Assembly (NCBI GenBank): GCA_944389975.1
Contig: CALXOH010000016.1
Span: 1 to 64,000, forward strand
Length of the DNA: 64,000 bases
Source of the DNA: an uncultured Spirochaetaceae bacterium
Lineage (GTDB): Bacteria > Spirochaetota > Spirochaetia > Sphaerochaetales > Sphaerochaetaceae
Reading direction: 5' to 3'
Shown: positions 21,430 through 55,442 of the stretch, piece after piece
Numbering within the stretch: the stretch's first letter is position 1
How the letters are laid out: the number at the start of each line of letters is the position of its first letter
The notes under the pieces: model-generated
Told to the model about the DNA's origin: nothing
The model's database searches: none
The model's input: the letters and a program-made list of their open reading frames with translations, nothing else
Made by a program: the position numbers and the translations under genes

Positions 21430-21440
21430 AAGGAGAAATG

Positions 21441-29662: not shown

Positions 29663-30655
29663 ATGTCGGACAAATACTATGATTCCTGGGGAAACGAATA
29701 CGTAAAGGTAGCCTCTGGCGGCGGACTGGTGGGATTGTTGTTCTTCATTGCCATTGTCTGGGCAGTAGTAAAATATGTTTCGTCCATATCGGAGGTGATT
29801 GCAACCGCGATTCTTGCCGTCGCAGCGATCGGGTCGTTGGTATTGTCCATCATCTGCATCGTCAGGCACCTTCGAGTATATGGCTATTTTTCTTCCGCAT
29901 TCATCATATTCCTGGTGTGCCTTCTTATTCAGATTTTCGAGTGGGATGGTTTTGGAAATGCATTGTTGATATGTTTCATTTCCCTGTTCGCATTTGCAAC
30001 TGCAAATGGAATGAAAAAGGCGATGATCGCTTGTTTTGTTCTTTGGCTTTTATGCGGATTCGGATCGGATACGATGGAGAACGTCAACATCACATCAAGG
30101 ATTCTCCAAGTGATGATTCCCGTTTACATGCTTCATCTGATCATGAATGAGAAAGGCAGGAAGCTCATTCCATTTCTTTTCGTAGTCTCTCTTCTTCTTT
30201 TTTCATATCCATACATTGCATCTCAAATCCTTTACGGCAAGAACATGTTCAGCCTTCCTGAAATCCTTTACGATCAACCGGCACTCTTTGCAATACTTCT
30301 TTTCATCTTCGGATATCTATTGAAACGCCCCGCCCTGGCTTTGTATCCGATACTTGTGTTGGTACTTTTGAGTGCACTATTGGAGATATTGCTCTCAGCC
30401 CGCATGATAACAAGCGGATACGGTTCGATCTTTCTTCCGTGCTTTTCCGACATATTCACGCTTTTGGGAGCAATTCCGCTTCAATTCATCCAAGATACTC
30501 TTTCTTCCTTGGTCGACTCCCAGCTTATCTATATAAGGGAGGGAAAGTACTTACTTCAATCTGATTTCTCGCTTGAGTTCTTCATCTTTGTCCTTGCATC
30601 CAGAGGTACTTACATCCGATACAGGAATAATCCGAAATACTTTTACGTCGAATGA
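29663..30655 (+). CDS. polytopic membrane protein, function unknown
   Basis: 330 residues with roughly nine hydrophobic helices separated by short loops. The N-terminus is MSDKYYDSWGNEYVKVASGG and the C-terminus is cytoplasmic-looking (YIRYRNNPKYFYVE). I recognise no transporter or enzyme motif. A good GGAGG lies before the ATG. It is monocistronic and divergent from mraZ. Its AT-rich coding sequence differs from the division genes and hints at accessory status. Confidence 0.7.
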   Translation: MSDKYYDSWGNEYVKVASGGGLVGLLFFIAIVWAVVKYVSSISEVIATAILAVAAIGSLVLSIICIVRHLRVYGYFSSAFIIFLVCLLIQIFEWDGFGNALLICFISLFAFATANGMKKAMIACFVLWLLCGFGSDTMENVNITSRILQVMIPVYMLHLIMNEKGRKLIPFLFVVSLLLFSYPYIASQILYGKNMFSLPEILYDQPALFAILLFIFGYLLKRPALALYPILVLVLLSALLEILLSARMITSGYGSIFLPCFSDIFTLLGAIPLQFIQDTLSSLVDSQLIYIREGKYLLQSDFSLEFFIFVLASRGTYIRYRNNPKYFYVE

Positions 30656-38946: not shown

Positions 38947-40275
38947 ATGTTGAAAAGAAAAAATCTTCCTGAAGTTGGGAAAGTCGAACTGAAGACGCTC
39001 TTCGCCCTCCGTCCCGGCCTTCTCATACTTTTTTCGATAATACTTGTTTTGATAATCCTTTCTTTTCTGTTGTTTTTCCTTCCCGGGATAATCAAAGGGG
39101 GGCGCTATGTATCGTTCTCATCCCCCATGTCCTCTGTCGGTGTTTTCATCGATGGGAAATACACCGGATCAAACAACGGTTCGTACTATTTCGTTCCCTC
39201 GGGCGTACACAGCGTGAAGTACGTCAAGGATGGAATTACACTCAAGGAGGGCACGATCGAAGTCGACCACCCGATCTTCCTCACCCTGTTCCGTCGCCCT
39301 GTCATGAACGTCGATATAACAAGCGACGTGGAAAACAAAGAGCTGAAGGACAAGGTAGTCTCTACATTCATCTCCGAGCTTTCCAATGCATCGAGGATAC
39401 TTGAGTATGACTCGAGGTTCCCCTACCGCCCGATCTTTGAAGAGAGGGCACGTGACTTCGCCTCCCTGTCGATCGAAGACACCGGAGGGCTATGGGACCT
39501 TGCTTCTTCCTTCATCACTTCAAAGGAGATGCTTGAAGACTACAAGGGAAGCGTTCTTTACCTACGTGAAAACGGATTTGACGTAAACGACTATTCGGAT
39601 GAGATTGAATTATTATTCTCATCCGATGGCGCTGTAGTCGGAATCGAGGATGAATCAAACATTCCATCATTTTCGGAAGAAGATGGGTATTTGCAAATTC
39701 CTGCCGGGGAGTACGTAATCGGTAGGAAAGTCGATCTCTCTTACCCTGACGTAATAGAGGAAAGCGTGGTGAAAGCCATTGGCGGATGCCGCATTTCAAC
39801 GCGCCTTGTCACAGAAAGCGATTATGCACTCTTTCTAAGGGACAACCCGTTCTGGGGAAGGGATAACAAGAGCACTTTGATCGAGAAAAACCTTGTCGAC
39901 GAACACTATCTTGACGGCGTTGTAATCTCCCCGGCATTCCATTCCCAGCGCCCGATAAGGAACATCAGTTACAATGCGGCAAAGGCGTACGTCGAATACA
40001 TCTCGGGAAAAGAGGGATGTGAGTATTACATTCCTACGGAAGGAGAGCTTGAGGTTTCGGGCATTTCGGGAAATAGCGGGCTATGGGAGTTCTCCTCAAC
40101 TCCGTTTGTTCCCCTCTCAAGGTACCTTGGCATCGACACGTCGCGCCATGCTGATTTGCTTTCTTCGGTGGATGTTGTTGTCAAAGGGGGGAAAGATGGC
40201 GAAAATACTACCCTTGGAGTCGTGCCCAGGAACATGACAAGCGAGTACATCGGACTCAGGATTGCTAAAAGATGA
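38947..40275 (+). CDS. membrane-anchored PEGA and SUMF1-like protein
   Basis: 442 residues: one membrane helix (about 27-50), a PEGA-like domain (SVGVFIDGKYTGSNNGSYYFVPSG), a connector, and a C-terminal formylglycine-enzyme-like (SUMF1) domain (RPIRNISYNAAKAYVEYISG, YIPTEGELEVSG, GLWEFSSTPF, IGLRIAKR). The active-site cysteines of true FGE are absent from the C-terminus, so it is likely a binding module in the periplasm or at the cell surface. It overlaps smpB by 4 bp. Confidence 0.78.
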   Translation: MLKRKNLPEVGKVELKTLFALRPGLLILFSIILVLIILSFLLFFLPGIIKGGRYVSFSSPMSSVGVFIDGKYTGSNNGSYYFVPSGVHSVKYVKDGITLKEGTIEVDHPIFLTLFRRPVMNVDITSDVENKELKDKVVSTFISELSNASRILEYDSRFPYRPIFEERARDFASLSIEDTGGLWDLASSFITSKEMLEDYKGSVLYLRENGFDVNDYSDEIELLFSSDGAVVGIEDESNIPSFSEEDGYLQIPAGEYVIGRKVDLSYPDVIEESVVKAIGGCRISTRLVTESDYALFLRDNPFWGRDNKSTLIEKNLVDEHYLDGVVISPAFHSQRPIRNISYNAAKAYVEYISGKEGCEYYIPTEGELEVSGISGNSGLWEFSSTPFVPLSRYLGIDTSRHADLLSSVDVVVKGGKDGENTTLGVVPRNMTSEYIGLRIAKR

Positions 40276-40739
40276 GCGAAAATAAAGATAGAAAAGAGAT
40301 ACAGAGAAATAGAAAGGCGTTCTTCAACTATGAGATGATCGAAGAACTTGAGTGCGGGATCGAACTCATGGGCACCGAAGTCAAAAGCGTACGGGAGGGG
40401 AAGTGCTCGTTCTCAGACAGCTACGTAATCGTCAAGAACGGCGAGTTGATGCTCGTAGGATTTTTGATCCAGCCATATTCACACGGCAATATATTCAACC
40501 ACAAGACTGACAGGACCAGGCGCCTTCTTGCGCATAAGGAAGAGATCAGGAAGTTTGAGCGGAAAGTAAACGAGAAAGGGCTGACGATAGTACCAATCTC
40601 GATCTACCTGAAGAAGAACAAGGTAAAGATGGAGATAGCGCTTGCAAGGGGAAAGAACGTCCGCGACAAGAAGGATGCGATAAAAGAAAGGGACCTTCAA
40701 AGGGAAGCCAGGCGCACAGTCAGGGAGATGGATTACTGA
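40272..40739 (+). CDS. smpB: SsrA-binding protein SmpB
   Basis: Partner of tmRNA in rescuing stalled ribosomes. 155 residues with AFFNYEMIEELECGIELMGTEVKSVREGKCSF, GNIFNHKTDRTRRLLAHKEEI and the basic C-terminal tail. The ATGA overlap couples it to the PEGA/SUMF1 gene. The tmRNA gene lies about 600 bp downstream on the opposite strand. Confidence 0.97.
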   Translation: MSENKDRKEIQRNRKAFFNYEMIEELECGIELMGTEVKSVREGKCSFSDSYVIVKNGELMLVGFLIQPYSHGNIFNHKTDRTRRLLAHKEEIRKFERKVNEKGLTIVPISIYLKKNKVKMEIALARGKNVRDKKDAIKERDLQREARRTVREMDY

Positions 40740-41345: not shown

Positions 41346-41712
41346 TGGAGGTGGGGAGAGTCGAACTCCCGTCCTAACAGTCCATCCATGAACGTCTACG
41401 GAACATAGGCATCTGTCTCTTTTTCACTTCCGTCAAGGTCAAATGCCAACGGCAACGAAAGCAAGCGCCCTAAAGCGTCCCCCGATCAAAGACGCCCTGA
41501 TCGAGGCAAGTCCCAGTTTTTGATGGCTAATTCAAGTTAGGAACCGCACCTGAAGTCGCCATGCAACCGTAATCAGGCTGCAAGTGCAAGATTGTCGTCG
41601 AGAACGATCTCTTCTTCTTTCTTTGCAGTTAATTTGTTTTGCCGGTTTTACAAGTCAGCTCTTGGCCCGCAGTCCATAGCCTGGCAAAGCTAGTCGAAAC
41701 CGAAACACCCCC
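41346..41712 (-). ncRNA. ssrA: transfer-messenger RNA (tmRNA)
   Basis: Both ends are recognised. The 5' end is GGGGGTG followed by TTTCGGTTTCGACTAGC, and the 3' end is GTTCGACTCTCCCCACCTCC plus discriminator A; the two ends pair as a 7-bp acceptor stem (one G-U). CCA is not encoded (TCA follows). The mature length is about 367 nt. The resume codon GCA (41626-41624) opens a tag of 17 codons, AKKEEEIVLDDNLALAA, ending at TGA 41575-41573; ALAA is the usual protease signal. Confidence 0.96.
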
Positions 41713-42573: not shown

Positions 42574-43850
42574 ACTTCCCTTCCCCGGAACGTGTTTCCT
42601 TTCAACTCGTTCACGTATAGCTCGACGACATCTCCTTCTTTATGCTCCTTCAAAGGAATGAACGATGTCATGTAGTTGTGCTCATCGCGGGAAAGAAGCA
42701 TATTCCCATCATCCCGGCTTTTTCCCAAGACGATCGCTTTTGTCTTGAATGGAAGAAGTGCTGATTTCATCCTCTTTGCCCTCTCAAGCTGTTTTTCGAT
42801 CAAGTATTCAAGCCTCCTCGTCTTCTCCTCAAGCGGGATCTGGCCGTCCATTGAGTATGCTTTCGTACCCTCGCGCGGATTGAAGTAGTACATGAAGGCT
42901 TCGACTGTAGGCATCTTATCCATCACTTCGATAGTCTCCAGGAACTCACTTTCACTCTCCGTGGGAAAGCCGACCATGACATCGGTTGAGAACGTAACGC
43001 CCTCGATTCCCTCTTTTATCCTTTCGACCAACTCCAGAAAGTCCTCTTTCGAATACTTTCTGTTCATCAACTTTAAAACCCTCGTCGATCCGGACTGCAT
43101 CGGAAGGTGTATGTGCCTTGCAATCTTTTTCTCTTTCCCGATTACCGAGATCAAGCGGGAAGAGAAATCCTTGGGGTGCGGACTTTCAAAACGTACGAAT
43201 TCAATTTCACCAAGCTTTCCATCTAGCGCTTCCAACAGCTCTGGAAATCCGACATTCCCGTCCTTGTAGCTGTTCACGTTCTGCCCGAGGAGGGTTATCT
43301 CCTTCACTTTGCTCTTCCCGAGCCTCTTTATTTCGCGTACTACATCGTCCAACGGACGGCTTACTTCCCTTCCCCTCACGTACGGCACGATGCAGTAGGA
43401 GCAGAAGTTATTGCATCCGTTCATTATCGGAACATAGGAGGAGAACTCCCCTTCCTTGAAGTAGCTTGGAAGGAACGAATACTTCTCCTTTTCAACTTCC
43501 CTCTCCTCTCCGTTTATGATGAAAGGAATCTCTTCCTTTCCAGTGTTTCCTATTATGTAGTCGATGTAGGGTGCTTTTTCCTTGAGTTCATCCTTGATGC
43601 GCGATGCCATGCACCCTGTGAGGATGATTTTGGTCTTTCCGTTTTTCTTCTTGACTGTCGAAAAATACCCCAATCGTCCGAATACCCTGCTTTCTGCGGA
43701 TGCGCGTACGGAGCATGTGTTTATTATCACGTAGTCGGCGTCGTTCTCATCTTCAGTCTTTTCGACGTTCAACCCTTTCAGAATCACTTCCATCGCGTTG
43801 CTCTCTGCAACATTCATCTGGCATCCGTATGTTTCTATATAGTATTTCAA
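42570..43850 (-). CDS. miaB: tRNA-2-methylthio-N6-dimethylallyladenosine synthase MiaB
   Basis: A radical-SAM methylthiotransferase acting on A37 of tRNA. 426 residues: N-terminal UPF0004 domain with Cys in ETYGCQMN, NTCSVR and TGCMASR; radical-SAM CSYCIVPYVRG; and a C-terminal TRAM domain (KEGDVVELYVNELKGNTFRG). It overlaps folD and sir2 by 4 bp each. Confidence 0.95.
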   Translation of the reverse strand: MKYYIETYGCQMNVAESNAMEVILKGLNVEKTEDENDADYVIINTCSVRASAESRVFGRLGYFSTVKKKNGKTKIILTGCMASRIKDELKEKAPYIDYIIGNTGKEEIPFIINGEEREVEKEKYSFLPSYFKEGEFSSYVPIMNGCNNFCSYCIVPYVRGREVSRPLDDVVREIKRLGKSKVKEITLLGQNVNSYKDGNVGFPELLEALDGKLGEIEFVRFESPHPKDFSSRLISVIGKEKKIARHIHLPMQSGSTRVLKLMNRKYSKEDFLELVERIKEGIEGVTFSTDVMVGFPTESESEFLETIEVMDKMPTVEAFMYYFNPREGTKAYSMDGQIPLEEKTRRLEYLIEKQLERAKRMKSALLPFKTKAIVLGKSRDDGNMLLSRDEHNYMTSFIPLKEHKEGDVVELYVNELKGNTFRGREV

Positions 43851-44728
43851 ATGCGCTCTCCTTTCCTTTTCAGCGCTGCCCTGATCGTGTTCTCCATGAG
43901 CATTGCAACCGTCATCACGCCAACTCCACCCGGAACCGGCGACAACTTGACATCACGATCTCTAAAGCTTTCCATGTCCACGTCCCCCACCACTTTGTAG
44001 CCCTTCTTTTTCGACTCGTCCTTCACTCTCGTTATTCCGACGTCGATTATCGTACACCCGTTTTTGACCATATCGGATGTCAGAAATCCCGGAGAGCCGA
44101 CAGCAACCACTACGATGTCGGCACTTGCCGTGTACTTTTTTATATCCCTCGTCTTCGAGTGGCAAAGCGTGACCGTTCCGTCAGCACCCTTTTCAGACAT
44201 CAATATCGATAGCGGACGGCCTACTATGTTGCTTCGACCGATGATCACTACATCCTGCCCTTTTATAGGTATTTCGTAGTACTCGAGCATTCTCATGATC
44301 CCTTTCGGTGTGCATGGCACGTTATCGTGGTAGCCTGCAAGCAAACGCCCCATGCTTAAAGGCGAAAAGCCATCCACATCCTTTTCCGCGCTGATTTTCT
44401 CCAGCACGTACTCTTCGGAAATTCCCGCGGGAAGAGGAAGCTGTACCAGAATACCATCCACGTCATCATCCTCGTTCAAGCTTTCGATTAAATTCAACAA
44501 CTCATCCTCCGAAGTATCCTCAGGAAGGAAGTGGTCGACGTGTTTTATTCCGACTTCATCAGCAAGCTTTCCCTTGCTCTTGACGTATGTAAGGCTTGCC
44601 CCGTCAGATCCAACGATTATTATCGCAAGCTCCGGGCGCCTTGAATAAGCCTGGTAAAATTTTTCAGATTCCTTTTTCAAGTCTGTAACGACATCATTCC
44701 GAACTTTTTTTCCATCGAGCAGAAACAT
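43847..44728 (-). CDS. folD: bifunctional methylene-THF dehydrogenase/cyclohydrolase FolD
   Basis: Interconverts methylene-, methenyl- and formyl-tetrahydrofolate. Catalytic region SLTYVKSKGKLADEVGI, GILVQLPLP, KDVDGFSPLSMGRL, NAD(P)-binding IIGRSNIVGRPLSILM and PVPGGVGVMTVAML. I start at MFLLDGKK (44728) to match family N-termini; a frame to 44770 would add 14 residues. It is first in the folD-miaB-sir2 operon. Confidence 0.95.
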   Translation of the reverse strand: MFLLDGKKVRNDVVTDLKKESEKFYQAYSRRPELAIIIVGSDGASLTYVKSKGKLADEVGIKHVDHFLPEDTSEDELLNLIESLNEDDDVDGILVQLPLPAGISEEYVLEKISAEKDVDGFSPLSMGRLLAGYHDNVPCTPKGIMRMLEYYEIPIKGQDVVIIGRSNIVGRPLSILMSEKGADGTVTLCHSKTRDIKKYTASADIVVVAVGSPGFLTSDMVKNGCTIIDVGITRVKDESKKKGYKVVGDVDMESFRDRDVKLSPVPGGVGVMTVAMLMENTIRAALKRKGERI

Positions 44729-44830
44729 ACCAGTAGTATTCAAGATTTCCGATCTTTCCTCAATCTCCATGCAATAATTACATACCCTTACTTCCTTTCA
44801 TTTTCCCAATTTCGTATACTTTGCACTGTG

Positions 44831-45415
44831 ATGAAAAAACGAATCAAACAGATAATCATGATCCTCTTGATCGCTATTATGCCTTTTATGCTCTATGCAA
44901 GGCCGTATTACGACAGCGGATCACAGATATTCACCATCAACGCTGGTGCGACGATCCCCATGTCCGCAACTTGGTTTGACGGACGGGGTACGGAGTACTG
45001 GTTCTCAGGCACGCATCAGTCGGTAGGTGCCTACGCATCTCTTTCGTACGAAGTCTTCATGAATTCGTACTTCGCAATAGGCGGACAGCTTGGATTCATG
45101 TTTGACTATTCGAATGCAGGAAAGATTTTCACCAACGTTCCGGTACTCTTGAAAGCGTCAGTATTCCCGCTTCAAGGAAAGTGGGAGCTTCCGATCTCCA
45201 TCGGAGTCGGAGGGGCGTACATGAGCTACCAAGAGGGAGGAAAGTTCACTTTCATGGCGACTTTTGAAATCGGTTTGAGATATTACATCACAGACGAATG
45301 GGGCGTCGGAGTGCACACAGGCATCCAAGTGCTTCCGGAGTTCTATATCAAAGACATCAACAGCGGAATGTTCACGTACCTACCTGTGACGCTCTCCGCT
45401 GCATACAGGCACTAA
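44831..45415 (+). CDS. predicted outer-membrane beta-barrel protein
   Basis: 194 residues with a signal peptide (KKRIKQIIMILLIAIMPFMLYA) and alternating strands rich in Gly, Tyr and Phe (FAIGGQLGFMFDYS, FEIGLRYYITDEWGVGVHTG), ending YLPVTLSAAYRH, a terminal aromatic/His strand as in outer-membrane barrels. It resembles small treponemal barrel proteins in form only. The ATG has no ribosome-binding site; an in-frame GTG lies at 44828. A lipoprotein gene follows 12 bp later. Confidence 0.7.
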   Translation: MKKRIKQIIMILLIAIMPFMLYARPYYDSGSQIFTINAGATIPMSATWFDGRGTEYWFSGTHQSVGAYASLSYEVFMNSYFAIGGQLGFMFDYSNAGKIFTNVPVLLKASVFPLQGKWELPISIGVGGAYMSYQEGGKFTFMATFEIGLRYYITDEWGVGVHTGIQVLPEFYIKDINSGMFTYLPVTLSAAYRH

Positions 45416-45427
45416 GGAGGAGTAAAG

Positions 45428-46588
45428 ATGAAGAAGATTACTCTACTTTTATTGGTTTTCATCGCACTCTTCTCCGCGTGCAACTCTGATCAGAACATCA
45501 GTATATTCGAGGATGTGATGACGGACGTACCCCAGGATGAAGCGAACAACAGAAGAGTCATGGGAAGGTATAATGACCAACTCGTGATTACAAACATCCA
45601 GGGAATTTCGATCGACGGGGAGACCAAGTACCAGAAGAACCACATCGAAGGTTATTTTGTAATTGGAAACAATGCCTATTTCATTGGTGACAATACCTAC
45701 TACTCCATCGATCTTTCTTCTGTTGAGCCAACTCCAGTGAAAGTGGATGATATAGCTCAAGAACTTGGGATTGGCATCGATTTTGACAGGATCTATGACA
45801 TTAGGTATTTTGAAAAGAGCGAAGACGAAAACGTCATCGGTAGTTACTCTGTATTGGGTGTAAGCGGAGAAGGCCTTGATAGAAGATACGTTGCCGCCGC
45901 TGTATATCTTGGTGGCAATGGAAATATTGATCATGTATATGCCCAAAGTATTCCAGTAAACCAGTATGTCATAAGGGGAGGCATATACCTTGCTGTTCCA
46001 CGCATCATAGGACCTGACGGTGCATACTCATATTACGAGCCCTCGACTGACAGAACTGACGAGGATGACTACCCGTTCTATTACAAGACAAACGACATAA
46101 GAATTCCAACTTCGTCAGGAACTGATGTGATCAGGTTCACAGTCAACGGAAGCGGTAAAGCTGTCGAGACCTATTTCGACGGCGTTGCGGTCGGAGTAGA
46201 CGGAAGCATATACAAATACTATAACGGGTCTTTCTCAAGGCTGAATGAAAGTTCCAGTACGAACACCAACATCGGAGAGTCGTACTCCGAAAGCATCCAG
46301 ATGATGTTCCCGATGACTAAGTACGATGGCGTAATATATGGCCTGAACCAGTATAGCACGCGTAGGTATTTCAGCTACGATACTGCTAGCGGAGGAAATG
46401 AGATCTCAATCCATTCCATCAGCAGCTACTCGCACTACGACTGCCTCGGCCTTTACTACTATGGAAAGAGCGGAAGCGGGGAGAATGAGATTACTTGGTT
46501 CTACTTCCCAACCGGCGGGCACAGCATGAGGTATTTGAACGTCAATACCGGTTCAGTGCAGTACAACAAACCTACAATAAACGACTAA
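45428..46588 (+). CDS. predicted lipoprotein, 386 residues
   Basis: A signal peptide and lipobox LFSAC (Cys18) predict a lipidated envelope protein. The mature region is rich in Tyr, Ser and short repeated strands (YYSIDLSS, YKYYNGSFS, IYGLNQYSTRRYFSYD), suggestive of a beta-propeller, but I cannot assign a family. AAGGAGGAG precedes the ATG. It probably shares a transcript with the barrel protein upstream. Confidence 0.75.
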   Translation: MKKITLLLLVFIALFSACNSDQNISIFEDVMTDVPQDEANNRRVMGRYNDQLVITNIQGISIDGETKYQKNHIEGYFVIGNNAYFIGDNTYYSIDLSSVEPTPVKVDDIAQELGIGIDFDRIYDIRYFEKSEDENVIGSYSVLGVSGEGLDRRYVAAAVYLGGNGNIDHVYAQSIPVNQYVIRGGIYLAVPRIIGPDGAYSYYEPSTDRTDEDDYPFYYKTNDIRIPTSSGTDVIRFTVNGSGKAVETYFDGVAVGVDGSIYKYYNGSFSRLNESSSTNTNIGESYSESIQMMFPMTKYDGVIYGLNQYSTRRYFSYDTASGGNEISIHSISSYSHYDCLGLYYYGKSGSGENEITWFYFPTGGHSMRYLNVNTGSVQYNKPTIND

Positions 46589-46593
46589 TTTCA

Positions 46594-46611
46594 AGCGGGA
46601 GCAATCCCGCT
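46594..46611 (+). terminator. hairpin between the lipoprotein and MFS genes
   Basis: Stem AGCGGGA/TCCCGCT with a GCAA tetraloop, 6 bp after the lipoprotein stop and 8 bp before the MFS ATG. It is followed by ATTTATT, a weak U-run. It could be a terminator, or could hide the GGGAG ribosome-binding sequence of the next gene. Confidence 0.5.
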
Positions 46612-46618
46612 ATTTATT

Positions 46619-47797
46619 ATGAGCACTCTTATTCTACTACTTGTAATCTATGCATCATTCATCTCACTCGGCCTTCCCGATTCGATGCTCGGAACTGCGT
46701 GGCCGCTGATGCATTTGGATATTAACGCATCTGTAAACACAGCCGGGATAGTCTCAACGCTCGTTTCAATCGGAACGGTCATCTCGAGCATCCTTTATTC
46801 AAAATATCTTTCGAGGGCGAGGACTGAAGTAATCACACTCTTTTCGATTGTTGCAACTGCACTGGCTCTTCTCTTTTTTTCGTTCTCCGGGAGTCTCTTG
46901 GGGTTGTTGCCGGTTGCAATCGTCCTCGGAATCGGCGCAGGTGCCGTCGATGCATCCCTGAACAACTACGTTGCAATACACTACAAAAGCAACGTCATGG
47001 GCTTTCTACACGCGTTCTGGGGGATAGGCACGCTCATTTCCCCATTCCTTTTCGGCTATCTATTCTCCATCGGGATATCCTGGCGTGAAGGCTACTTCTC
47101 GCTTTCGTTCGTACAACTCTCAATCGCTTTGATAGTCTTATCAAGCTTCCCTCTTTGGAAGAAGGAGGAAAAGCGGTTCAAGCTCGAGCATAGGGAAATC
47201 GAAACAGACGACCTCGGCATGAAATATACGATAACAGAGCTCTTCAAGACCAAAGGAGTCATCCCTGCAGTCCTTTCCTTCTTTACATACTCTGCAGTCG
47301 AACAGACAGCGATGCTCTGGGCCCCTACTTTCCTTGTATGGGCAAACGGAATGAATGAAAGTGATGCTGCGACTGCAGGAGGGATGATCTTTCTGGGAAT
47401 TACAGTCGGAAGGATCCTTACTGGGCTTTTGTCAGAAAAGGCAGGCTCTTCACGTCTTATCTCAATCGGGCACGTTTTGATACTTTTTGGTATCCTTTCC
47501 CTGATTATCCTCCCAAAGGAATACATCCCAATCTATTTCATAGTATTTGGAATCGGCCTCGGCCCGATCTACCCAATGATGGTACATCAGACTCCGGAGA
47601 TATTCGGACTTTCCCGTTCATCCCAGGTTCTGGGACTGGAGATGGCATTGAGTTACATAAGCGTTGCAACGATGCCAAACCTCTTCGGATATCTGGCAAG
47701 GCTAACATCATTCTCCACGCTTCCCTTCTTCCTCATTGCATTCCTTTTTTTGAATATCGTGACGATCCAGTTGAAAAAGAGAGCATCATACGCTTAG
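46619..47797 (+). CDS. major facilitator superfamily transporter
   Basis: A 12-helix transporter of 392 residues. GLPDSMLGTAWPLMH in helix 1 and GLGPIYPMMVHQTPEIFG in the C-terminal half resemble the YfkF/FucP-like sugar and drug MFS groups; the substrate is unknown. The only purine-rich ribosome-binding candidate lies within the hairpin just upstream. Its end overlaps the convergent membrane-protein gene by 12 bp. Confidence 0.85.
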   Translation: MSTLILLLVIYASFISLGLPDSMLGTAWPLMHLDINASVNTAGIVSTLVSIGTVISSILYSKYLSRARTEVITLFSIVATALALLFFSFSGSLLGLLPVAIVLGIGAGAVDASLNNYVAIHYKSNVMGFLHAFWGIGTLISPFLFGYLFSIGISWREGYFSLSFVQLSIALIVLSSFPLWKKEEKRFKLEHREIETDDLGMKYTITELFKTKGVIPAVLSFFTYSAVEQTAMLWAPTFLVWANGMNESDAATAGGMIFLGITVGRILTGLLSEKAGSSRLISIGHVLILFGILSLIILPKEYIPIYFIVFGIGLGPIYPMMVHQTPEIFGLSRSSQVLGLEMALSYISVATMPNLFGYLARLTSFSTLPFFLIAFLFLNIVTIQLKKRASYA

Positions 47798-48604
47798 AAA
47801 AAGATACATCTTGTACCAAATGATGTATCCTATCGTGCATCCGATGAGGAAGAAGAATGAAAGAATGCCTCGTATATGCAAAGAGATGAAGGAAGACCAG
47901 CTATTGCCTACGCCAGAAAAGAACGGAAAGAAGAACTTCACTGTCAGTAGTATCACAGCAACAATTGCTATCACTCCGGGCCAAAGCCCGAAGGCTGTAA
48001 AGATCATATAGGAAACCCATACGCCGAGTGCAATTACTGCGAGCGACATGATGATTGCAAATACATTCGAAAATAGATCTGTTGAAAGAAAGAGCACAAA
48101 AAGGCAGAGTGCGGTGCTAACGGCAGCTTGCCACTTGAGTATGGGAATGATGAAGTACATGAGCTTTCTCTCCCTTCTTTCCTTATTCGCCCTATACATG
48201 TCGAGCACTGTCTTCCGTTCCTTTGAAATCAGAATTCCCAAAATCAATGAAGAGATTGAGAGAACGTAAAGAAGCATTTTTGAATTAGCAATTCTAATAC
48301 TCATTAGAAGTTTAATTGGATTTAAAGCAATGAATAAAAAGACAAGAGTATCCAAAGTCAGCACAGGAATCATATGCTCGATTCCGTCGAACGAATTGTA
48401 TCCCATTCGTCTGATGAAAACCATCCAGCTTAGTACAAATATGGTGAGGTCGAAAAGGATGACAGAGATTGTCGATAAAATTGGAGATGCTGACACACCT
48501 GAAAGAACAAGCAAGAAGAAAAGTAGAAGAAAATATGCGCCGGACAAGACGGCAAAAGCAGTATCCTTTTTGTACTTTTCAAGAAAAGTTTCCATCTGTT
48601 TCAC
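47786..48604 (-). CDS. polytopic membrane protein of a four-gene unknown operon
   Basis: 272 residues with about eight hydrophobic helices and one basic cytoplasmic loop (KERKTVLDMYRANKERRERK). I see no transporter or enzyme signature. It starts with GTG overlapping the stop of the 330-residue gene (GTGA), so the two are translationally coupled. It is last in the operon that begins at 50045. Confidence 0.65.
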   Translation of the reverse strand: MKQMETFLEKYKKDTAFAVLSGAYFLLLFFLLVLSGVSASPILSTISVILFDLTIFVLSWMVFIRRMGYNSFDGIEHMIPVLTLDTLVFLFIALNPIKLLMSIRIANSKMLLYVLSISSLILGILISKERKTVLDMYRANKERRERKLMYFIIPILKWQAAVSTALCLFVLFLSTDLFSNVFAIIMSLAVIALGVWVSYMIFTAFGLWPGVIAIVAVILLTVKFFFPFFSGVGNSWSSFISLHIRGILSFFFLIGCTIGYIIWYKMYLFLSV

Positions 48605-49593
48605 TTTCCTTTCGCAACGTTCTTATTCATCGCATTGTAAACTTTCGAAAGCTTAACAAGCGCATTGATCAATTTTTCATCAATTCCGCTCTCATACGTC
48701 GCTGCTATGGTTTCAAGTTCAGCCACATATATCTTGTGACACTCCTTCAAAGGAACGGTAAGCTCATATAGTTCGTTTGAAAGTGCCAATGCTTTTTCCT
48801 TCTCGTTTGCCAGTGCCTTGATATCCTTTACACGCTGGGCAACCTCTTCTGAGTATCTTGCTTCCTTGTCGGCTTTTTCCGTAATAAGCTGGCCTACTGC
48901 TGTCAATGCACCGACTGCGATAATGCCAGCTCCTCCTACCCCACCTAACCTGTTACCGCTTTCGATAAGGGAAAGCCCAAGACTTGAATCATTACCTTGG
49001 TCTGAATGTAGTTCTTGCCAAAGATTATCCGAATTTATTTCAAGTGAATAAGTTCCGACATCCTTGTCCCTTTTGAGTTTAACATCATATTTACTCAATT
49101 TGTTTGAAAAACAATTGATGATTACGCTGATGCACTCCATCTCCTTCGTGGCAAGGGCTCTGAAATCAAGGCGTACATCCCTCATCCTTTTCAGATGGAA
49201 GTTGATGGACTTGAGTTGTGATCTCAAATCGAAGTATAGTGAATCAACTTTGGTGAACCTTTCCTGATTAGGCGTTTCAAAAAAAGAGTTGACTGCATCC
49301 AAAATTCCAATCCCTGTTTCTTTTCTTTTCTTCTTGTAGTACCGGGCATACTTGAGTTTCTTGAAAAGAACATCGAATTCATTGCAGGAATCGATGACTT
49401 CTTTATAGAAATAATCCATCAGGCTTTCATATGACTCGAATTCAGAATTATTTGATTTCCCCAGGCAATAATCCAAAGTATATTTTGTTTTGTTTTCATT
49501 CAGACGCTTGAATCTTATCCTTCGAAAGATCAAGTAGATTAGTGATGCAATGGCAAATGGAATGACGAAAGAAAAGAGTAATTCAGGATGCAT
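48601..49593 (-). CDS. membrane-anchored coiled-coil protein, function unknown
   Basis: 330 residues: an N-terminal membrane helix (LLFSFVIPFAIASLIYLIF), a basic helical middle, a glycine/alanine-rich hydrophobic segment (GGVGGAGIIAVGALTAVGQ, about 210-228) and a charged C-terminal coiled coil (ITEKADKEARYSEEVAQ onward). The hydrophobic-then-charged layout recalls the 96-residue protein of the same operon. It begins 6 bp after the 51-residue gene. No family recognised. Confidence 0.65.
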   Translation of the reverse strand: MHPELLFSFVIPFAIASLIYLIFRRIRFKRLNENKTKYTLDYCLGKSNNSEFESYESLMDYFYKEVIDSCNEFDVLFKKLKYARYYKKKRKETGIGILDAVNSFFETPNQERFTKVDSLYFDLRSQLKSINFHLKRMRDVRLDFRALATKEMECISVIINCFSNKLSKYDVKLKRDKDVGTYSLEINSDNLWQELHSDQGNDSSLGLSLIESGNRLGGVGGAGIIAVGALTAVGQLITEKADKEARYSEEVAQRVKDIKALANEKEKALALSNELYELTVPLKECHKIYVAELETIAATYESGIDEKLINALVKLSKVYNAMNKNVAKGK

Positions 49594-49599
49594 ATGTGC

Positions 49600-49755
49600 C
49601 TATCGGTGCTTCTTGCTTTTCCTCATTTCGATCGAGTTGCGTGAAGTCGTTGAAATTGCATCAAGAACTTTCATTATCACATCAGGGTTTTCCTTCAACT
49701 GAGGAGATGAGACGACGTGATCGACTACTTTTGAAACATCATCCATGCTCTTCAT
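49600..49755 (-). CDS. 51-residue small protein of the unknown operon
   Basis: A short gene that starts MKSMDDVSKVVDHVVSSP and ends RNSIEMRKSKKHR. It is predicted helical, acidic at the start and basic at the end. Its ATG overlaps the stop of the 96-residue gene by one base (TGATG), and its stop lies 6 bp before the 330-residue gene, spacing that strongly supports real coupled translation. No family recognised. Confidence 0.6.
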   Translation of the reverse strand: MKSMDDVSKVVDHVVSSPQLKENPDVIMKVLDAISTTSRNSIEMRKSKKHR

Positions 49756-50045
49756 CACTTCATCGTGCACGTGTCCTCTTCTTTCTTTGAGAGTTCGTAG
49801 TCGGAAGATATTCGTTTGATTTCAATCTTCGCGTACGCTTCCGCTTCTCTGCTCCGGGCCATCGAATCTGCAACAGAAGAAATTGTATTTCCGATAATCC
49901 CGGTGACGGCGACTGTAGCATCGACAGCATGCCTTCCTAGGTCGACAACCGAATCCAGTGCGCTTCCCTTATATACATCAACTTCCTGAGATTTTTGTTC
50001 CTTAACAGGTACAAGATCCGATGTATTGTTTTTAGATTTTCTCAT
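49755..50045 (-). CDS. 96-residue protein with central small-residue helix
   Basis: A charged N-terminus (MRKSKNNTSDLVPVKEQ), a weakly hydrophobic small-residue segment (HAVDATVAVTGIIGNTISSV, about 42-61) and a charged helical tail (ARSREAEAYAKIEIKRI). It could be membrane-associated through the middle segment. It is the first gene of the four-gene operon; the upstream region lacks a clear ribosome-binding site or promoter. Function unknown. Confidence 0.55.
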   Translation of the reverse strand: MRKSKNNTSDLVPVKEQKSQEVDVYKGSALDSVVDLGRHAVDATVAVTGIIGNTISSVADSMARSREAEAYAKIEIKRISSDYELSKKEEDTCTMK

Positions 50046-50093
50046 ATGTACAAAATACTACAGAGAAATGGATCATGAAAGACAATGAATGCC

Positions 50094-50708
50094 TCAGGAA
50101 AGAATTTCCTTCAGGATTCTCTTTACATCCTCGTCATCGTAAAGCTTATCGATCTCCTCATCCGTCAGTCCGATGAACTCATGCATCGTATAATGAATCC
50201 ACTTCGAATCTTCAGGCTTGTATATATCGTGCCTTCTTGAGTAGTAATCGGGCTGGATCGGAAGTTTCTCATCCTTCTTATAGTGGTAGATCTTGTAGTC
50301 GTAAACTGCTACTTTGATGTTTTCCCTCTTAAGGCCCACGTCAGTAAGGGAATTGACAAGCTCATTTACAGTCATCCCCGTATCGAATATGTCATCAACT
50401 ACCAGAACTTTGGAGTTCTTGTCTAGGCTTTCCGGGCTTACTGTCCACCCGTCGATGTCGACGTGGTTAGAGTGCTCCCTTACAGAGCCGTAGCTTCTTG
50501 CAACAACAGCAGCGTACAAAAGCGATTTCCCGATCTTCTTTCCTACAATCTTGTAGTACTCGCTTATAACGTTCGCCATGTACGCGCCCCCGCGGAGGGA
50601 GTCGTAGATGATATCCGGAAAGAACCCATCCTCCTTGTACATCTTCTCGGCAAGTTTCAAAGACGCATCTCGAATCATCTCCTGGGTAATGAAGTCCTTC
50701 TCGATCAT
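50094..50708 (-). CDS. hypoxanthine/guanine-type phosphoribosyltransferase
   Basis: 204 residues of type I phosphoribosyltransferase fold: PDIIYDSLRGGAYMANVISEYY and the PRPP-binding motif VLVVDDIFDTGMT. It should convert a purine base and PRPP to the nucleotide (salvage). Start ATG 50708 with AAGGAGATGAT upstream; a longer frame to 50777 overlaps map and is unlikely. It lies 11 bp after map in the same run. Confidence 0.82.
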   Translation of the reverse strand: MIEKDFITQEMIRDASLKLAEKMYKEDGFFPDIIYDSLRGGAYMANVISEYYKIVGKKIGKSLLYAAVVARSYGSVREHSNHVDIDGWTVSPESLDKNSKVLVVDDIFDTGMTVNELVNSLTDVGLKRENIKVAVYDYKIYHYKKDEKLPIQPDYYSRRHDIYKPEDSKWIHYTMHEFIGLTDEEIDKLYDDEDVKRILKEILS

Positions 50709-50719
50709 ATCATCTCCTT

Positions 50720-51469
50720 TTACGTAAGTATTTCTATTCCGGAATTTGTAAGCGCCACAGTGTGTTCCCAGTGGCATGCGGGCTTTCCATCAGCTGTCTT
50801 CACTGTCCAGCCGTCATCAAGCTCCTTGATCTTATGCGTCCCCATGTTGATCATCGGTTCGATGCAGAAAACCATCCCTTTTTTCAGCTTCGAGTTCGTG
50901 TTCTGTGGAGAGACGTAGTTGTAGATCAACGGATCCTCATGCATTTCAAACCCGACACCGTGTCCGCAATACTCCCTGACAATCCCATACCCGAACTGAT
51001 TGATGTAGCTTTCGATCGCATATGCAATGTCGTGTAGTCTTGCGCCGCTCTCCCCCGCCTTCTCAATTCCTATGTAGAGGGCTTTCTCGGTCCTGACATT
51101 CAATAGGTGGACATCCTCCGAGACATTCCCTATCTCATACGTATGAGTGCTGTCGCTTATAAACCCGTTCTTCTCCAAAGTTATATCTACGGATACAAGA
51201 TCCCCTTCCTTGAGGATTATCTTTTTGGAAGGGATGCCGTGAATTACTGTGTCGTTTACGCTCACGCACGTCGCTGCCGGGTAGTCGTAGTATCCGAGGC
51301 ACGGGGCACCGCACTTGTGCTTCTTCATATATTCGAACGCGATCTTGTCCACTTCGAATGTGGACATTCCCGCCATTATCCTCCCGGATAGCTCGACAAA
51401 GAGTTCCTTCAGATATTTTCCGGATTCCCTTATTCCTTCTATCTCTTTTTCATTCTTGAGCTGAATCAT
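50720..51469 (-). CDS. map: methionine aminopeptidase type I
   Basis: Removes the initiator methionine from nascent proteins. 249 residues with NDTVIHGIPSKK (His), DLVSVDITLE and DSTHTYEIG (metal Asp), GHGVGFEMHEDP and CIEPMINMG (metal Glu) in the expected order. It overlaps the end of nusB by 20 bp. Confidence 0.95.
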   Translation of the reverse strand: MIQLKNEKEIEGIRESGKYLKELFVELSGRIMAGMSTFEVDKIAFEYMKKHKCGAPCLGYYDYPAATCVSVNDTVIHGIPSKKIILKEGDLVSVDITLEKNGFISDSTHTYEIGNVSEDVHLLNVRTEKALYIGIEKAGESGARLHDIAYAIESYINQFGYGIVREYCGHGVGFEMHEDPLIYNYVSPQNTNSKLKKGMVFCIEPMINMGTHKIKELDDGWTVKTADGKPACHWEHTVALTNSGIEILT

Positions 51470-51905
51470 CTTTCCTGTCCTTGACGAACTTGTCCAGAAT
51501 ACCGTTTATGAACTTGTACGAAACATCGTTCGAGAGCACCTGGGAAAGCTTCACCCCCTGATCGATGACGACTGCAGATGGAATCTCCTTCTGATAGAGA
51601 AGTTGGAAAAACGAGATTCTGAGAATATTCCGGTCGACTATCGAAATCTTCTCAAGAGGCCTGTTTATCGAGTAAGAGGAGATTATTGAATCGATCTCTT
51701 TCCTGTTTTCCAAGGTTCCTCTCACGAGAAGCCTTGCATAAGACTTCTCGACCTCCTCGAGTCTCATCATCTCCTCTTCCGTCATTCCAGGGAACGTCGA
51801 ATAGTCGTTGTATGAATCAAGTTCGCCATTGAAATCGAGGCTGTACAATGTCGATACAGCAATCTCCCGGGCTTTCGACCGGGATGAATAATCGTGTTTC
51901 ATCAA
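51450..51905 (-). CDS. nusB: transcription antitermination factor NusB
   Basis: A small helical protein of 151 residues that binds boxA RNA with NusE during rRNA transcription. SRSKAREIAVSTLYSLDF at the N-terminus and IPSAVVIDQGVKLSQVLS...FINGILDKFV at the C-terminus are family signatures. It overlaps the foldase gene by 4 bp. Confidence 0.93.
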   Translation of the reverse strand: MMKHDYSSRSKAREIAVSTLYSLDFNGELDSYNDYSTFPGMTEEEMMRLEEVEKSYARLLVRGTLENRKEIDSIISSYSINRPLEKISIVDRNILRISFFQLLYQKEIPSAVVIDQGVKLSQVLSNDVSYKFINGILDKFVKDRKDDSAQE

Positions 51906-52969
51906 TACGTCCTTATCCTTGCCTGGTTCCTGAGGTCGACTATGATCTCATCGAGCGCTTTCTGAACAGCTTCCTGCTGCTTCTGGCTTTGGAGTATGTT
52001 TCTGATGTACTCGCGTACAGTTACCGTGGTTTCAGGGTTCAATGTGTCATCGATCGATAGAAGATTTCCATCGGTGTGGACAGTGACTTTCACGATATGG
52101 TAGCCGACGTTGCTTTCAAGCATAGGTGAAACCTGTCCCGGTTGCATCGCCATAACCTGGTTGAAGAACTCGTCGCCGAATCCGGCCCTCGCCTGATCGT
52201 TGTCGATCCTCAGCCATCCGATATCCCCTGCGATGTTCTTGCTTCCATCGTCTTGGCTGTACTTTGGAACAGCTTCCTCGAACGTCATCTCACCTGCTTT
52301 GATCTTGTTCGCAACATCGATTAGCAAAGCGGCGTTCTCCTCGTCTGCGCTTACCCTGGCGCTTTCATCTTCCTCAGTCGAGTGCGGAATGAAGATATGC
52401 GCAAGCTTAACGCTCTCAGGGGAGTAGAAATTCTGCCTGTTCTTCCTGTAGAAATCCATTATCTCGGAGTCAGTGACGGTAAGATCGATGTTCTGAAGCT
52501 CATCCCCTTTCTGAGTCATGAGGTACATCTGGACAAGCATCTGCTCTTTCAGTGCATTCTTGTATTCATCGAATGTAACGCCCGTCTGCTGCTGGATCAA
52601 ACTCTGGAACTGTTCGTCTGTAAGCGGAGTCGGAAGGTTTCTGTTCGCTTCTGCCTTGATCGCATCAAGCTGCTGCTGGACCTGCATGTCGTTTACTACA
52701 ACTCCATCCCTCTCAGCCCCTTGCAAAAACACTTCATCGTTGATCATGATATCCAAGACCTGGACTCGGGATAAATTCATCCCCGCCCTTCTGTAGTTCT
52801 CGACCTCCCGATCGACTTCCTCGTTCGTTATCGCGTGATTTCTGATCAAGTTGACTGTCGCTGCAGGTGAAGAGATTATTGTGGTAGACCCGTTTGCTGC
52901 GCTTAATGCAACCGTCAACGAGAGAAGAGCAAGCATTACCAAGCATTTTTTAGTAATTTTGCCAAACAT
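51902..52969 (-). CDS. PpiC/SurA-like peptidyl-prolyl isomerase foldase
   Basis: 355 residues with a signal peptide (KKCLVMLALLSLTVALSAANG), an N-terminal SurA-like helical chaperone region (ITNEEVDREVENYRRAGM) and a parvulin domain (ESVKLAHIFIPHS, GDIGWLRIDNDQARAGFGDEFF, VGYHIVKVTVH). It probably helps outer-membrane proteins fold in the periplasm. Start ATG 52969 with GGAGG at good spacing, not the longer frame to 53011. Confidence 0.88.
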   Translation of the reverse strand: MFGKITKKCLVMLALLSLTVALSAANGSTTIISSPAATVNLIRNHAITNEEVDREVENYRRAGMNLSRVQVLDIMINDEVFLQGAERDGVVVNDMQVQQQLDAIKAEANRNLPTPLTDEQFQSLIQQQTGVTFDEYKNALKEQMLVQMYLMTQKGDELQNIDLTVTDSEIMDFYRKNRQNFYSPESVKLAHIFIPHSTEEDESARVSADEENAALLIDVANKIKAGEMTFEEAVPKYSQDDGSKNIAGDIGWLRIDNDQARAGFGDEFFNQVMAMQPGQVSPMLESNVGYHIVKVTVHTDGNLLSIDDTLNPETTVTVREYIRNILQSQKQQEAVQKALDEIIVDLRNQARIRTY

Positions 52970-53072
52970 ATTACCTCCGTATTCCAAACTTTCCCCAAAT
53001 TTACTATTCATCAGGATAAATGTTTCTCATTGGAAATACATCCCAAAAGAAGAAAAATCCGGAGAAAAAGGG

Positions 53073-53106
53073 AAAAATATAGGCCGGTAGAGCGAATCCA
53101 CCGGCC
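53073..53106 (-). terminator. terminator after secG
   Basis: Minus strand: GGCCGGT/ACCGGCC stem (53106-53100 and 53088-53082, 11-base loop) followed by TATATTTTTCCC, 17 bp after the secG stop. It ends the gap-pgk-tpiA-secG transcript before the foldase gene. Confidence 0.8.
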
Positions 53107-53122
53107 GTTATGGCAGAAAGAC

Positions 53123-53485
53123 TCAGTTATTTCCTTCCGTCACCACATCAGTTCCCTGAGTGCCCGCATCACTTTGAGCACCCTGGCTTTCAAGCCATGT
53201 GGATCCGGCTTCAGTCTGCGTAGCTTCCAAAGCTTCCAGCACGTGCCCGCCTGAAGATCTTCCGGAAAGGGAGACCAAAAGGGCGAGAACCATGAATATT
53301 ATGGCAAGTACCGTAGTAGCCTTGTGAAGGAAACTGACGGTATTGCTTCCGAATGCAGATTCGGAAGATCCACCGAAAATGCCACCAAGCCCTACGCTGT
53401 CATCGCTCTGGATGGCGACCAGGAAGACAAGCAGGAGGGATACGATAATGAAGACAACAAGAAGGATTATGCTGAAAATTCCCAT
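53123..53485 (-). CDS. secG: preprotein translocase subunit SecG
   Basis: 120 residues with two membrane helices (SIILLVVFIIVSLLLVFLVAI and VLAIIFMVLALLVSL) and the conserved loop GLGGIFGGSSESAFGSNT between them. It joins SecYE and works with SecA, encoded elsewhere in the window. The C-terminal tail is Gln/Thr/Gly-rich. It follows tpiA by 18 bp, a common neighbour pair. Confidence 0.93.
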   Translation of the reverse strand: MGIFSIILLVVFIIVSLLLVFLVAIQSDDSVGLGGIFGGSSESAFGSNTVSFLHKATTVLAIIFMVLALLVSLSGRSSGGHVLEALEATQTEAGSTWLESQGAQSDAGTQGTDVVTEGNN

Positions 53486-53503
53486 CTTACACTTACTCCG
53501 AAA

Positions 53504-54262
53504 TTACTTGTCGAAGGTAATGATCGGCAGGAAGAGATCAACTGAGAGGGATGCACCTCCTACGAGTGCTCCATCGATGTTCTCCTTTGCCATCAATGCC
53601 TTGACATTGTTAGCCTTAACGGAACCACCATACTGTATAATCAGGTTTTCTGCAATATCGTTATTGTAAAGATCCTTCACAGTATCGCGGATGAATGCAT
53701 GTGCGCTGTCTGCATCCTCAGGTGTCGCAGTCTTACCAGTTCCGATCGCCCATACAGGTTCGTATGCAATCGTGATGTGGCTCATCTGGTCAGCGGAAAC
53801 ATCCTTCAAGCCGACTTTGATCTGGCGTGAAAGAACTTCCTCGAGTTTTCCAGCCTCCCTCTCCTCGAGAGTCTCACCAACGCAGAGGACTACATCCATT
53901 CCCTCCTGGATTGCAAGAAGAACCTTGCTGTTGATGAACTCATCGCTTTCAGCGTAGTAAGACCTTCTCTCGCTGTGTCCGAGGATGACCGTGTTCACTC
54001 CGAGGTCTTTGAGCATTGCAGGTGCAACTTCTCCCGTGTAAGCGCCGCTTGTGTGATTTGCCATGTTCTGGGCAGCTACGATGATCGATGAGCCCTTGAG
54101 AGCCTCAACTACTGCAGGAATCGTTACGAAAGGTGGAGCTACCATCACCTTGACGTCTGCCTTGGCATCCTCAACTGCCTTCCTGAGTTCAGCTGCATAT
54201 TTTGCACCCTCTGACGGGGTCATGTTCATTTTCCAGTTTCCAGCGATATATGGTGTTCTCAT
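53504..54262 (-). CDS. tpiA: triosephosphate isomerase
   Basis: Interconverts dihydroxyacetone phosphate and glyceraldehyde 3-phosphate. 252 residues with YIAGNWKMNM (catalytic Lys), ILGHSERR (His), AYEPVWAIGTGKTATPE (Glu and the flexible loop) and YGGSVKANN. The ATG at 54262 lies 1 bp after the pgk stop; the longer frame upstream is an artefact. Confidence 0.97.
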   Translation of the reverse strand: MRTPYIAGNWKMNMTPSEGAKYAAELRKAVEDAKADVKVMVAPPFVTIPAVVEALKGSSIIVAAQNMANHTSGAYTGEVAPAMLKDLGVNTVILGHSERRSYYAESDEFINSKVLLAIQEGMDVVLCVGETLEEREAGKLEEVLSRQIKVGLKDVSADQMSHITIAYEPVWAIGTGKTATPEDADSAHAFIRDTVKDLYNNDIAENLIIQYGGSVKANNVKALMAKENIDGALVGGASLSVDLFLPIITFDK

Positions 54263-54263
54263 T

Positions 54264-55442
54264 TTATTTCTCCAATGCCTTGATGCCGGGAAGGGTCTTT
54301 CCTTCGAGGAATTCAAGCGATGCACCACCTCCAGTGGAGACGTGCGAGATCTTGTCGGCAAGGCCGAACTTGTTGATTGCAGCGACGCTGTCGCCACCGC
54401 CTACTACGCTTACAGCGTCAGAGTCGGCAAGTGCTTTTGCGACCATCTCCGTGCCCTTTGCAAACTGTGCAAACTCAAATACCCCCATCGGGCCGTTCCA
54501 TACGACGTTCTTTGCGTCCTTGAGCGCATCAGTGATGAGTTTTACAGTCTTGGGTCCGATATCCATTCCCATGAGGTCATCCGGGATGTCAACCGAATCG
54601 ACGGCAACAGGCTCCGCAGTCTCAGCAAACTCCTTTGCAGCGACGTGGTCAACAGGGAGGATGACTTCTACGTTCTTCTCCTTTGCTTTTTCAAGGAATG
54701 AAGAAGCTGTCTCGAGGAAATCATCTTCGACAAGGGATTTGCCGATCTTGTGTCCCTGAACCTTTAAAAACGTGTATGCCATTCCGCCACCGATGACGAT
54801 CTTGTCACATGTCTTTGCGAGGGACTCGAGGACTGTGATCTTGCTGGATACTTTGCTTCCTCCGATTATAGCGACAAACGGATGCTCCGGATTCTCCAAG
54901 AGAGGAGCCATGTACTTGACTTCCTTCTCGATTAAGAAACCTGCGTAGGAAGGAAGGTAGTGCGATACGCCCTCCGTGGATGCGTGCGCCCTGTGTGCTG
55001 TTCCGAACGCGTCGTTCACGTATACGTCACCATAAGATGCGAGCGCTTTTGCATACTCCGGATCGTTCTTCTCCTCTTCCTTGTAGAAGCGGACGTTCTC
55101 AAGCATCAGTACTTCACCCGGCTTGAGTGCCTTGACCATGTCCTCCACTTCCTTTCCGAGTACGTCCGGAGCAAGAAGCACAGGCCTTCCGAGAAGCTTT
55201 TCGAACTCGTTCTTTACGGGAAGAAGCGAGAACTCAGGCTTCTTCTCTCCCTTTGGGCGACCGAAGTGAGTCATGATTACAAGGCTTGCACCCTCTGAAA
55301 GAATGTAGTTGATGGTCGGAAGAGCAGCCTTGATCCTCGTAGGATCAGTGACAACGCCGTTCTTGACCGGGCAGTTGAAATCAACGCGGATCAAAACCCT
55401 CTTGCCTTTCAAGTCAGCTTCCTTGACTGTATGTAGTTCCAT
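54264..55442 (-). CDS. pgk: phosphoglycerate kinase
   Basis: Transfers phosphate from 1,3-bisphosphoglycerate to ADP. 392 residues with [24 protein letters not shown], the GGSKVSSKI hinge region and the C-terminal [13 protein letters not shown]. It is encoded between gap and tpiA, forming a glycolytic operon. Confidence 0.97.

What the first reader, a model, noticed from the sequence alone, without database searches (positions are those of the whole stretch)
47786..50045. Four-gene operon of unknown membrane and coiled-coil proteins
Genes of 96, 51, 330 and 272 codons are linked by TGATG, 6-bp and GTGA junctions, which indicates coordinated translation. None matches a family I know. Two of them share a small-residue hydrophobic segment followed by a charged helix, and the last is a polytopic membrane protein. 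The block is AT-richer than its neighbours. It could be an undescribed membrane complex, for example an envelope-stress or phage-defence module.
Basis: partly seen in the sequence, partly recalled or inferred. Interest (0 to 1): 0.6.

Follow-up and report, generated by a model that had tools for sequence, protein, structure and literature searches.

The report
Foreign-looking four-gene membrane operon of orphans
Four tightly packed genes for unknown membrane and helical proteins have been dropped neatly behind a housekeeping operon in one bacterium; no relative was found anywhere searched, so they look like a foreign accessory module whose job, perhaps keeping out phages, is still a guess.

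Summary
On the minus strand, genes of 96, 51, 330 and 272 codons are joined by TGATG, a 6-bp gap and GTGA. The two long ones are the lowest-GC ORFs of 52 in the window (0.40 against a mean of 0.486). No Pfam, NCBIfam, PADLOC, PHROG or PDB family matches. No credible homologue was found in about 140 same-family genomes or larger class and phylum samples, nor in GTDB contigs, viral contigs, phages or plasmids.

New here: the block is an insertion. In the nearest relative (G067) the two flanking genes, a phosphoribosyltransferase and an MFS transporter, overlap tail to tail with nothing between. The same spot holds other genes in other congeners, including once a DUF234 ATPase that PADLOC lists as a defence candidate. 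The four genes therefore form a probably laterally acquired accessory module appended to the tpi-secG-PPI-nusB-MAP-PRT operon.

Best guess: a one-TM coiled-coil protein, an 8-TM partner and small peripheral proteins form an inner-membrane complex serving mobile-element conflict. The acquisition is well supported; the function is not. Genes 1 and 2 may be halves of one frameshifted gene. Interest is modest.

The parts
49755..50045 (-). g1: 96-aa protein, charged N-terminus, small-residue hydrophobic stretch (residues 41-59), charged helix; probably cytoplasmic/peripheral
   Evidence: KD19 peak 1.27, below a usual TM threshold; no family, no homologue
49600..49755 (-). g2: 51-aa protein, ATG overlaps g1 stop (TGATG); may be the 3' part of a frameshifted g1
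48601..49593 (-). g3: 330-aa protein, N-terminal TM helix, then helical/coiled-coil cytosolic part, second Gly-rich hydrophobic segment, long charged helix
   Evidence: (low-confidence model); no family or homologue
49525..49581 (-). g3 residues 5-23: predicted TM anchor followed by RRIRFKR (cytoplasmic side by positive-inside rule)
   Evidence: KD19 2.51
48883..48939 (-). g3 residues 219-237: glycine-rich hydrophobic segment VGGAGIIAVGALTAVGQLI
   Evidence: KD19 1.83; region aligns with g1 residues 24-84 at score 53, 6/1000 shuffles
49869..49925 (-). g1 residues 41-59: matching small-residue hydrophobic segment VDATVAVTGIIGNTISSVA
47786..48604 (-). g4: 272-aa polytopic membrane protein, about 8 TM helices with a charged central loop (129-148), GTG start in GTGA overlap; its 3' end overlaps the MFS gene by 12 bp
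47798..50093 (.). inserted block between the MFS gene and the phosphoribosyltransferase gene, absent from the nearest relative
50094..50777 (-). flanking phosphoribosyltransferase gene (PRT), last core gene of the tpi-secG-PPI-nusB-MAP-PRT operon, 48 bp upstream of g1 on the same strand
46619..47797 (+). flanking convergent MFS transporter gene (present next to PRT in G067)

Best explanation
A laterally acquired four-gene accessory module inserted between two convergent genes. Shown: a compact gene string, low GC, an empty site in the nearest relative, and no homologues found. Inferred: with no terminator-like and no promoter-like site found between PRT and g1, it is transcribed by read-through from the housekeeping operon, and its products are made together by coupled translation. 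Inferred from sequence: g3 is anchored in the inner membrane by its N-terminal helix, with a cytosolic coiled-coil body whose second, glycine-rich segment packs against or dips into the membrane. g4 is its 8-TM partner. g1 (with g2) is a peripheral subunit using a similar glycine-rich segment. Most likely function, and the least certain step: a constitutively present membrane complex acting against or for mobile elements (phage entry block, superinfection exclusion or abortive membrane damage).
For: Junctions; GC outlier; empty site in G067 and variable gene content at the site in other congeners; no g3 or g4 homologue in about 140 same-family genomes including 47 congeners, nor g1 in a class sample; no promoter- or terminator-like site between PRT and g1 on the minus strand; TM and segment analysis; a PDC-S27 (DUF234 ATPase) candidate defence gene at the same site in one congener.
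Against: No defence family match; neighbours are housekeeping; no integrase, tRNA or clear target duplication at the ends; only one of ten congener sites read at length holds a defence candidate; structure models too poor to test the complex (pLDDT 41 and 54).
Confidence: 0.3

Rival explanations
1. Decaying cargo of a mobile element: the operon came in by transfer but is not under useful selection; g1/g2 is one gene broken by a frameshift and the block will be lost.
For: g1 and g2 frames are both open across the junction for about 20 codons, and the joined product reads as one helical protein; foreign composition and absence elsewhere; no mobility genes at the ends.
Against: The other reading frames are intact, including a 330-codon one; g4 has a good SD and the GTGA coupling.
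Confidence: 0.25
2. Envelope or housekeeping-type membrane complex (transport, stress sensing, cell-wall work) peculiar to this species, not related to phages.
For: A polytopic partner plus a membrane-anchored coiled-coil protein is a common layout; position at the end of a housekeeping operon implies constitutive expression. Other genes at this site in congeners are mostly metabolic or transport.
Against: Absent from all congeners tested and from the rest of the family, so not needed by the lineage; no match to any known transporter, sensor or wall family.
Confidence: 0.25
3. Toxin-immunity module: the glycine-rich segments of g1/g3 insert in membranes and damage them, and the polytopic g4 protects the producer.
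For: Two proteins with a glycine-rich hydrophobic segment next to charged helices, encoded beside a polytopic protein; glycine-zipper membrane toxins exist (TelE, PMC10434224, title and abstract listed).
Against: No delivery domain and no family match; g3 is itself membrane-anchored by its N-terminus.
Confidence: 0.1
4. An old vertical operon lost by all relatives, with no lateral origin.
For: No element ends or target duplication were found.
Against: It would need loss in all congeners and other genera tested, plus an exact deletion down to overlapping stops in G067; GC is about 3 sd below the window mean.
Confidence: 0.07

Closest known systems
Kiwa and Zorya (membrane-based anti-phage systems)
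   Same: General layout only: a membrane component coupled to a helical/cytosolic one encoded in a compact accessory operon (from general knowledge; Zorya ZorA/ZorB complex in PMC11890865, abstract start read).
   Different: No PADLOC model of any system matches; g3 has one N-terminal TM rather than ZorA's several (ZorA from memory); no recognisable ATPase or nuclease partner.
Laterally acquired ORFan islands in bacterial genomes
   Same: AT-rich, no homologues, clean insertion between conserved genes, absent from relatives.
   Different: Four closely coupled genes with a coherent membrane theme rather than isolated small ORFs.
Glycine-zipper membrane toxins such as TelE (PMC10434224)
   Same: Glycine-rich hydrophobic segment.
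   Different: No LXG or other delivery domain and no immunity family match; resemblance is by eye only.

Membership tests
Kiwa / Zorya / any system in PADLOC 2.0.0 | Match of at least one component to the system's profile HMM | tested here: not met
   0 families for all four proteins at E up to 5
Kiwa / Zorya / any system in PADLOC 2.0.0 | Located in a defence island | tested here: not met
   Flanks are PRT, MAP, nusB, PPI, secG, tpi and MFS, lipoprotein, OMP, folD; the nearest credible PADLOC candidate among the window ORFs tested is about 25 kb away
Kiwa / Zorya / any system in PADLOC 2.0.0 | Protects cells from phage | not testable with these tools
   Needs a phage challenge
Laterally acquired ORFan island | Empty site in a close relative | tested here: met
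   G067: PRT and MFS adjacent, stops overlapping
Laterally acquired ORFan island | Composition differs from neighbours | tested here: met
   Lowest two GC and GC3 values of 52 ORFs
Laterally acquired ORFan island | No detectable homologues | tested here: met
   most weak matches were read and judged chance
Laterally acquired ORFan island | Mobility gene, att site or target duplication at the ends | tested here: not met
   none seen; not obligatory for the kind
phrog_1754 / phrog_6010 (phage proteins of unknown function) | Significant profile match | tested here: not met
   E 0.0035 for the g3 C-terminus and 0.066 for joined g1+g2; 4 of 10 local shuffles reach E 0.017-0.019 with other families
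Glycine-zipper toxin with polytopic immunity protein | Toxic to cells lacking the immunity gene | not testable with these tools
   Needs an expression test

The most novel reading that the evidence does not exclude
The four proteins are the first seen members of a new membrane-complex system, possibly anti-phage, spread between unrelated bacteria and here inserted behind a constitutive housekeeping operon.
Probability: 0.12. Interest if true: 0.65.

Novelty: new member of a known kind. Interest (0 to 1): 0.3.

Why it matters
If it is a working module, it would add a protein complex with no known relatives and show that defence-type cargo can ride on housekeeping operons outside defence islands, where neighbourhood-based searches miss it. 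If it is only passing ORFan cargo, it matters little beyond documenting a variable insertion site in this genus.

Tried and rejected
Profile scans of whole proteins and of segments: nothing above noise. The PHROG near-hits were rejected with a shuffle control, and a search of 120 genomes with phrog_1754 gave only two unrelated-looking proteins.

Weak genome matches: L004 and L035 fall in frames broken by stops; L037 matches an unrelated or broken frame; L036 looks like a GGDEF-type protein by eye; the L051 match lies at the start of a DNA polymerase I gene; L053 is in a repetitive lipoprotein-like ORF. L052 was fetched but not read. The g4 matches (L057-L063) are short or lie in long ORFs of other sizes, and L065-L067 were not read further; I take both sets as chance, given E-values of 1e-4 to 0.01 per genome over about 400 genomes.

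The repeat search at the ends found only chance-like short repeats. No Rfam RNA in 43000-55000.

I considered a programmed frameshift joining g1 and g2: I saw no clear slippery site by eye, but it is not excluded.

Full report
WHAT IS THERE. Four minus-strand genes lie at 47786-50045: g1 (96 aa), g2 (51 aa), g3 (330 aa) and g4 (272 aa). The spacing is g1-g2 overlap by 1 bp (TGATG), g2-g3 gap of 6 bp, g3-g4 overlap of 4 bp (GTGA). Random sequence of the same dinucleotide make-up does not give such ORFs (longest of 500 simulations 198 codons). Codon scores favour the annotated frames for g1-g3 and are neutral for g4.

THE PROTEINS. g3 has a strong N-terminal TM segment (residues 5-23) followed by a cluster of basic residues, so its body should be cytosolic. 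That body is helical in the (poor) model, and a second, glycine-rich hydrophobic segment (219-237) is followed by a long charged helix. g1 carries a weaker segment of the same type, and the two regions align with a score reached by 6 of 1000 shuffles (16 of 1000 with local-composition shuffles), so their kinship is possible but not shown. g4 has about eight hydrophobic segments with a highly charged central loop. The 330- and 272-aa models have pLDDT 41 and 54 and were not used for fold searches.

NO RELATIVES. Pfam, NCBIfam, PADLOC and PHROGs give nothing credible for the four proteins, and PDB sequences nothing for g3. A shuffle control shows that the best PHROG near-hits are close to the noise. 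Same-family genomes (139, the window's own among them, with 47 congeners) lack g3 and g4 (the one E 8e-4 match to g4 is in a frame with stops). Larger phylum and class samples lack g3, g1 and g4 apart from weak matches that look like chance. Scans of GTDB contigs (g3, g1), viral contigs, phages and plasmids are negative. The contig scans need near-exact 8-residue stretches, so distant homologues could be missed.

WHERE IT SITS. Upstream on the same strand is a compact housekeeping operon: tpi, secG, a peptidyl-prolyl isomerase-like gene, nusB, methionine aminopeptidase and a phosphoribosyltransferase (PRT). PRT is a Pfam match; tpi, secG, nusB, MAP and PPI are names I gave by reading the translations. 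Downstream, convergent, is an MFS transporter. In the nearest relative G067 (L038) the same genes are present in the same order, but PRT and MFS overlap tail to tail, with no room for the four genes. The block 47798-50093 is therefore an insertion here, or, much less likely, an exact deletion there. The PRT-to-lipoprotein interval is variable across the genus: nothing, an Na+/H+ antiporter, GtrA plus unknown genes, or a DUF234 ATPase that PADLOC lists as candidate PDC-S27; sugar-use genes flank PRT in others. The two long genes have the lowest GC of all 52 ORFs in the window. There is no integrase, tRNA or clear repeat at the ends.

HOW IT MOST LIKELY WORKS. Shown: gene structure, empty site and foreign composition. 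Inferred: with no promoter- or terminator-like site found between PRT and g1, the module is expressed by read-through from the housekeeping operon. The membrane theme suggests a complex of g3 (anchor and coiled coil), g4 (channel or scaffold) and g1/g2 (peripheral). A role in conflict between the host and mobile elements is the most plausible use for a laterally spread membrane module absent from relatives, but nothing here tests it. I give that whole chain 0.3, decaying cargo 0.25, another envelope role 0.25, toxin-immunity 0.1.

G1 AND G2. g2's frame is open upstream of its start back to a stop about 20 codons away, overlapping the end of g1, so one indel would join them into a single protein of about 149 residues. 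Whether the split is real, an assembly indel or decay cannot be told without reads or homologues.

COMPARISON. It is not a member of any PADLOC system. In anatomy it resembles membrane-based defence systems such as Kiwa or Zorya only loosely, and that resemblance comes from general knowledge. As a kind, it is a laterally acquired ORFan island, with features met as listed. The organism's name was not given by the tools.

Noticed in passing
window 21438-22793 (+): Low-GC (0.444) 451-aa ATPase_2/DUF234 protein matching PADLOC candidate PDC-S27 (E 7.9e-28), between minus-strand genes; possibly another lateral insert.
   Followed up: partly
L043:8948-10342 (G054): A DUF234 ATPase of the same PDC-S27 family (E 1e-37) sits directly next to PRT, at the same insertion spot as the four-gene operon; local GC 0.35.
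   Followed up: partly
window 29663-30655 (+): 330-aa ORF with low GC (0.431) and no Pfam or PADLOC match.
   Followed up: no
window 40272-40739 (+) and 41346-41712 (-): smpB and the tmRNA gene (tag AKKEEEIVLDDNLALAA) lie within 1 kb of each other, with a 442-aa ORF without a Pfam match (38947-40275) ending next to smpB.
   Followed up: no
window 44828-46588 (+): Outer-membrane-protein-like gene plus fast-evolving lipoprotein gene, next to folD in most congeners read; the lipoprotein has no Pfam match beyond a weak lipid-attachment site.
   Followed up: partly
window 50720-50777: PRT and MAP ORFs overlap by 58 bp; the PRT start may be further downstream, as many relatives align only from residue 20-25.
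   Followed up: no
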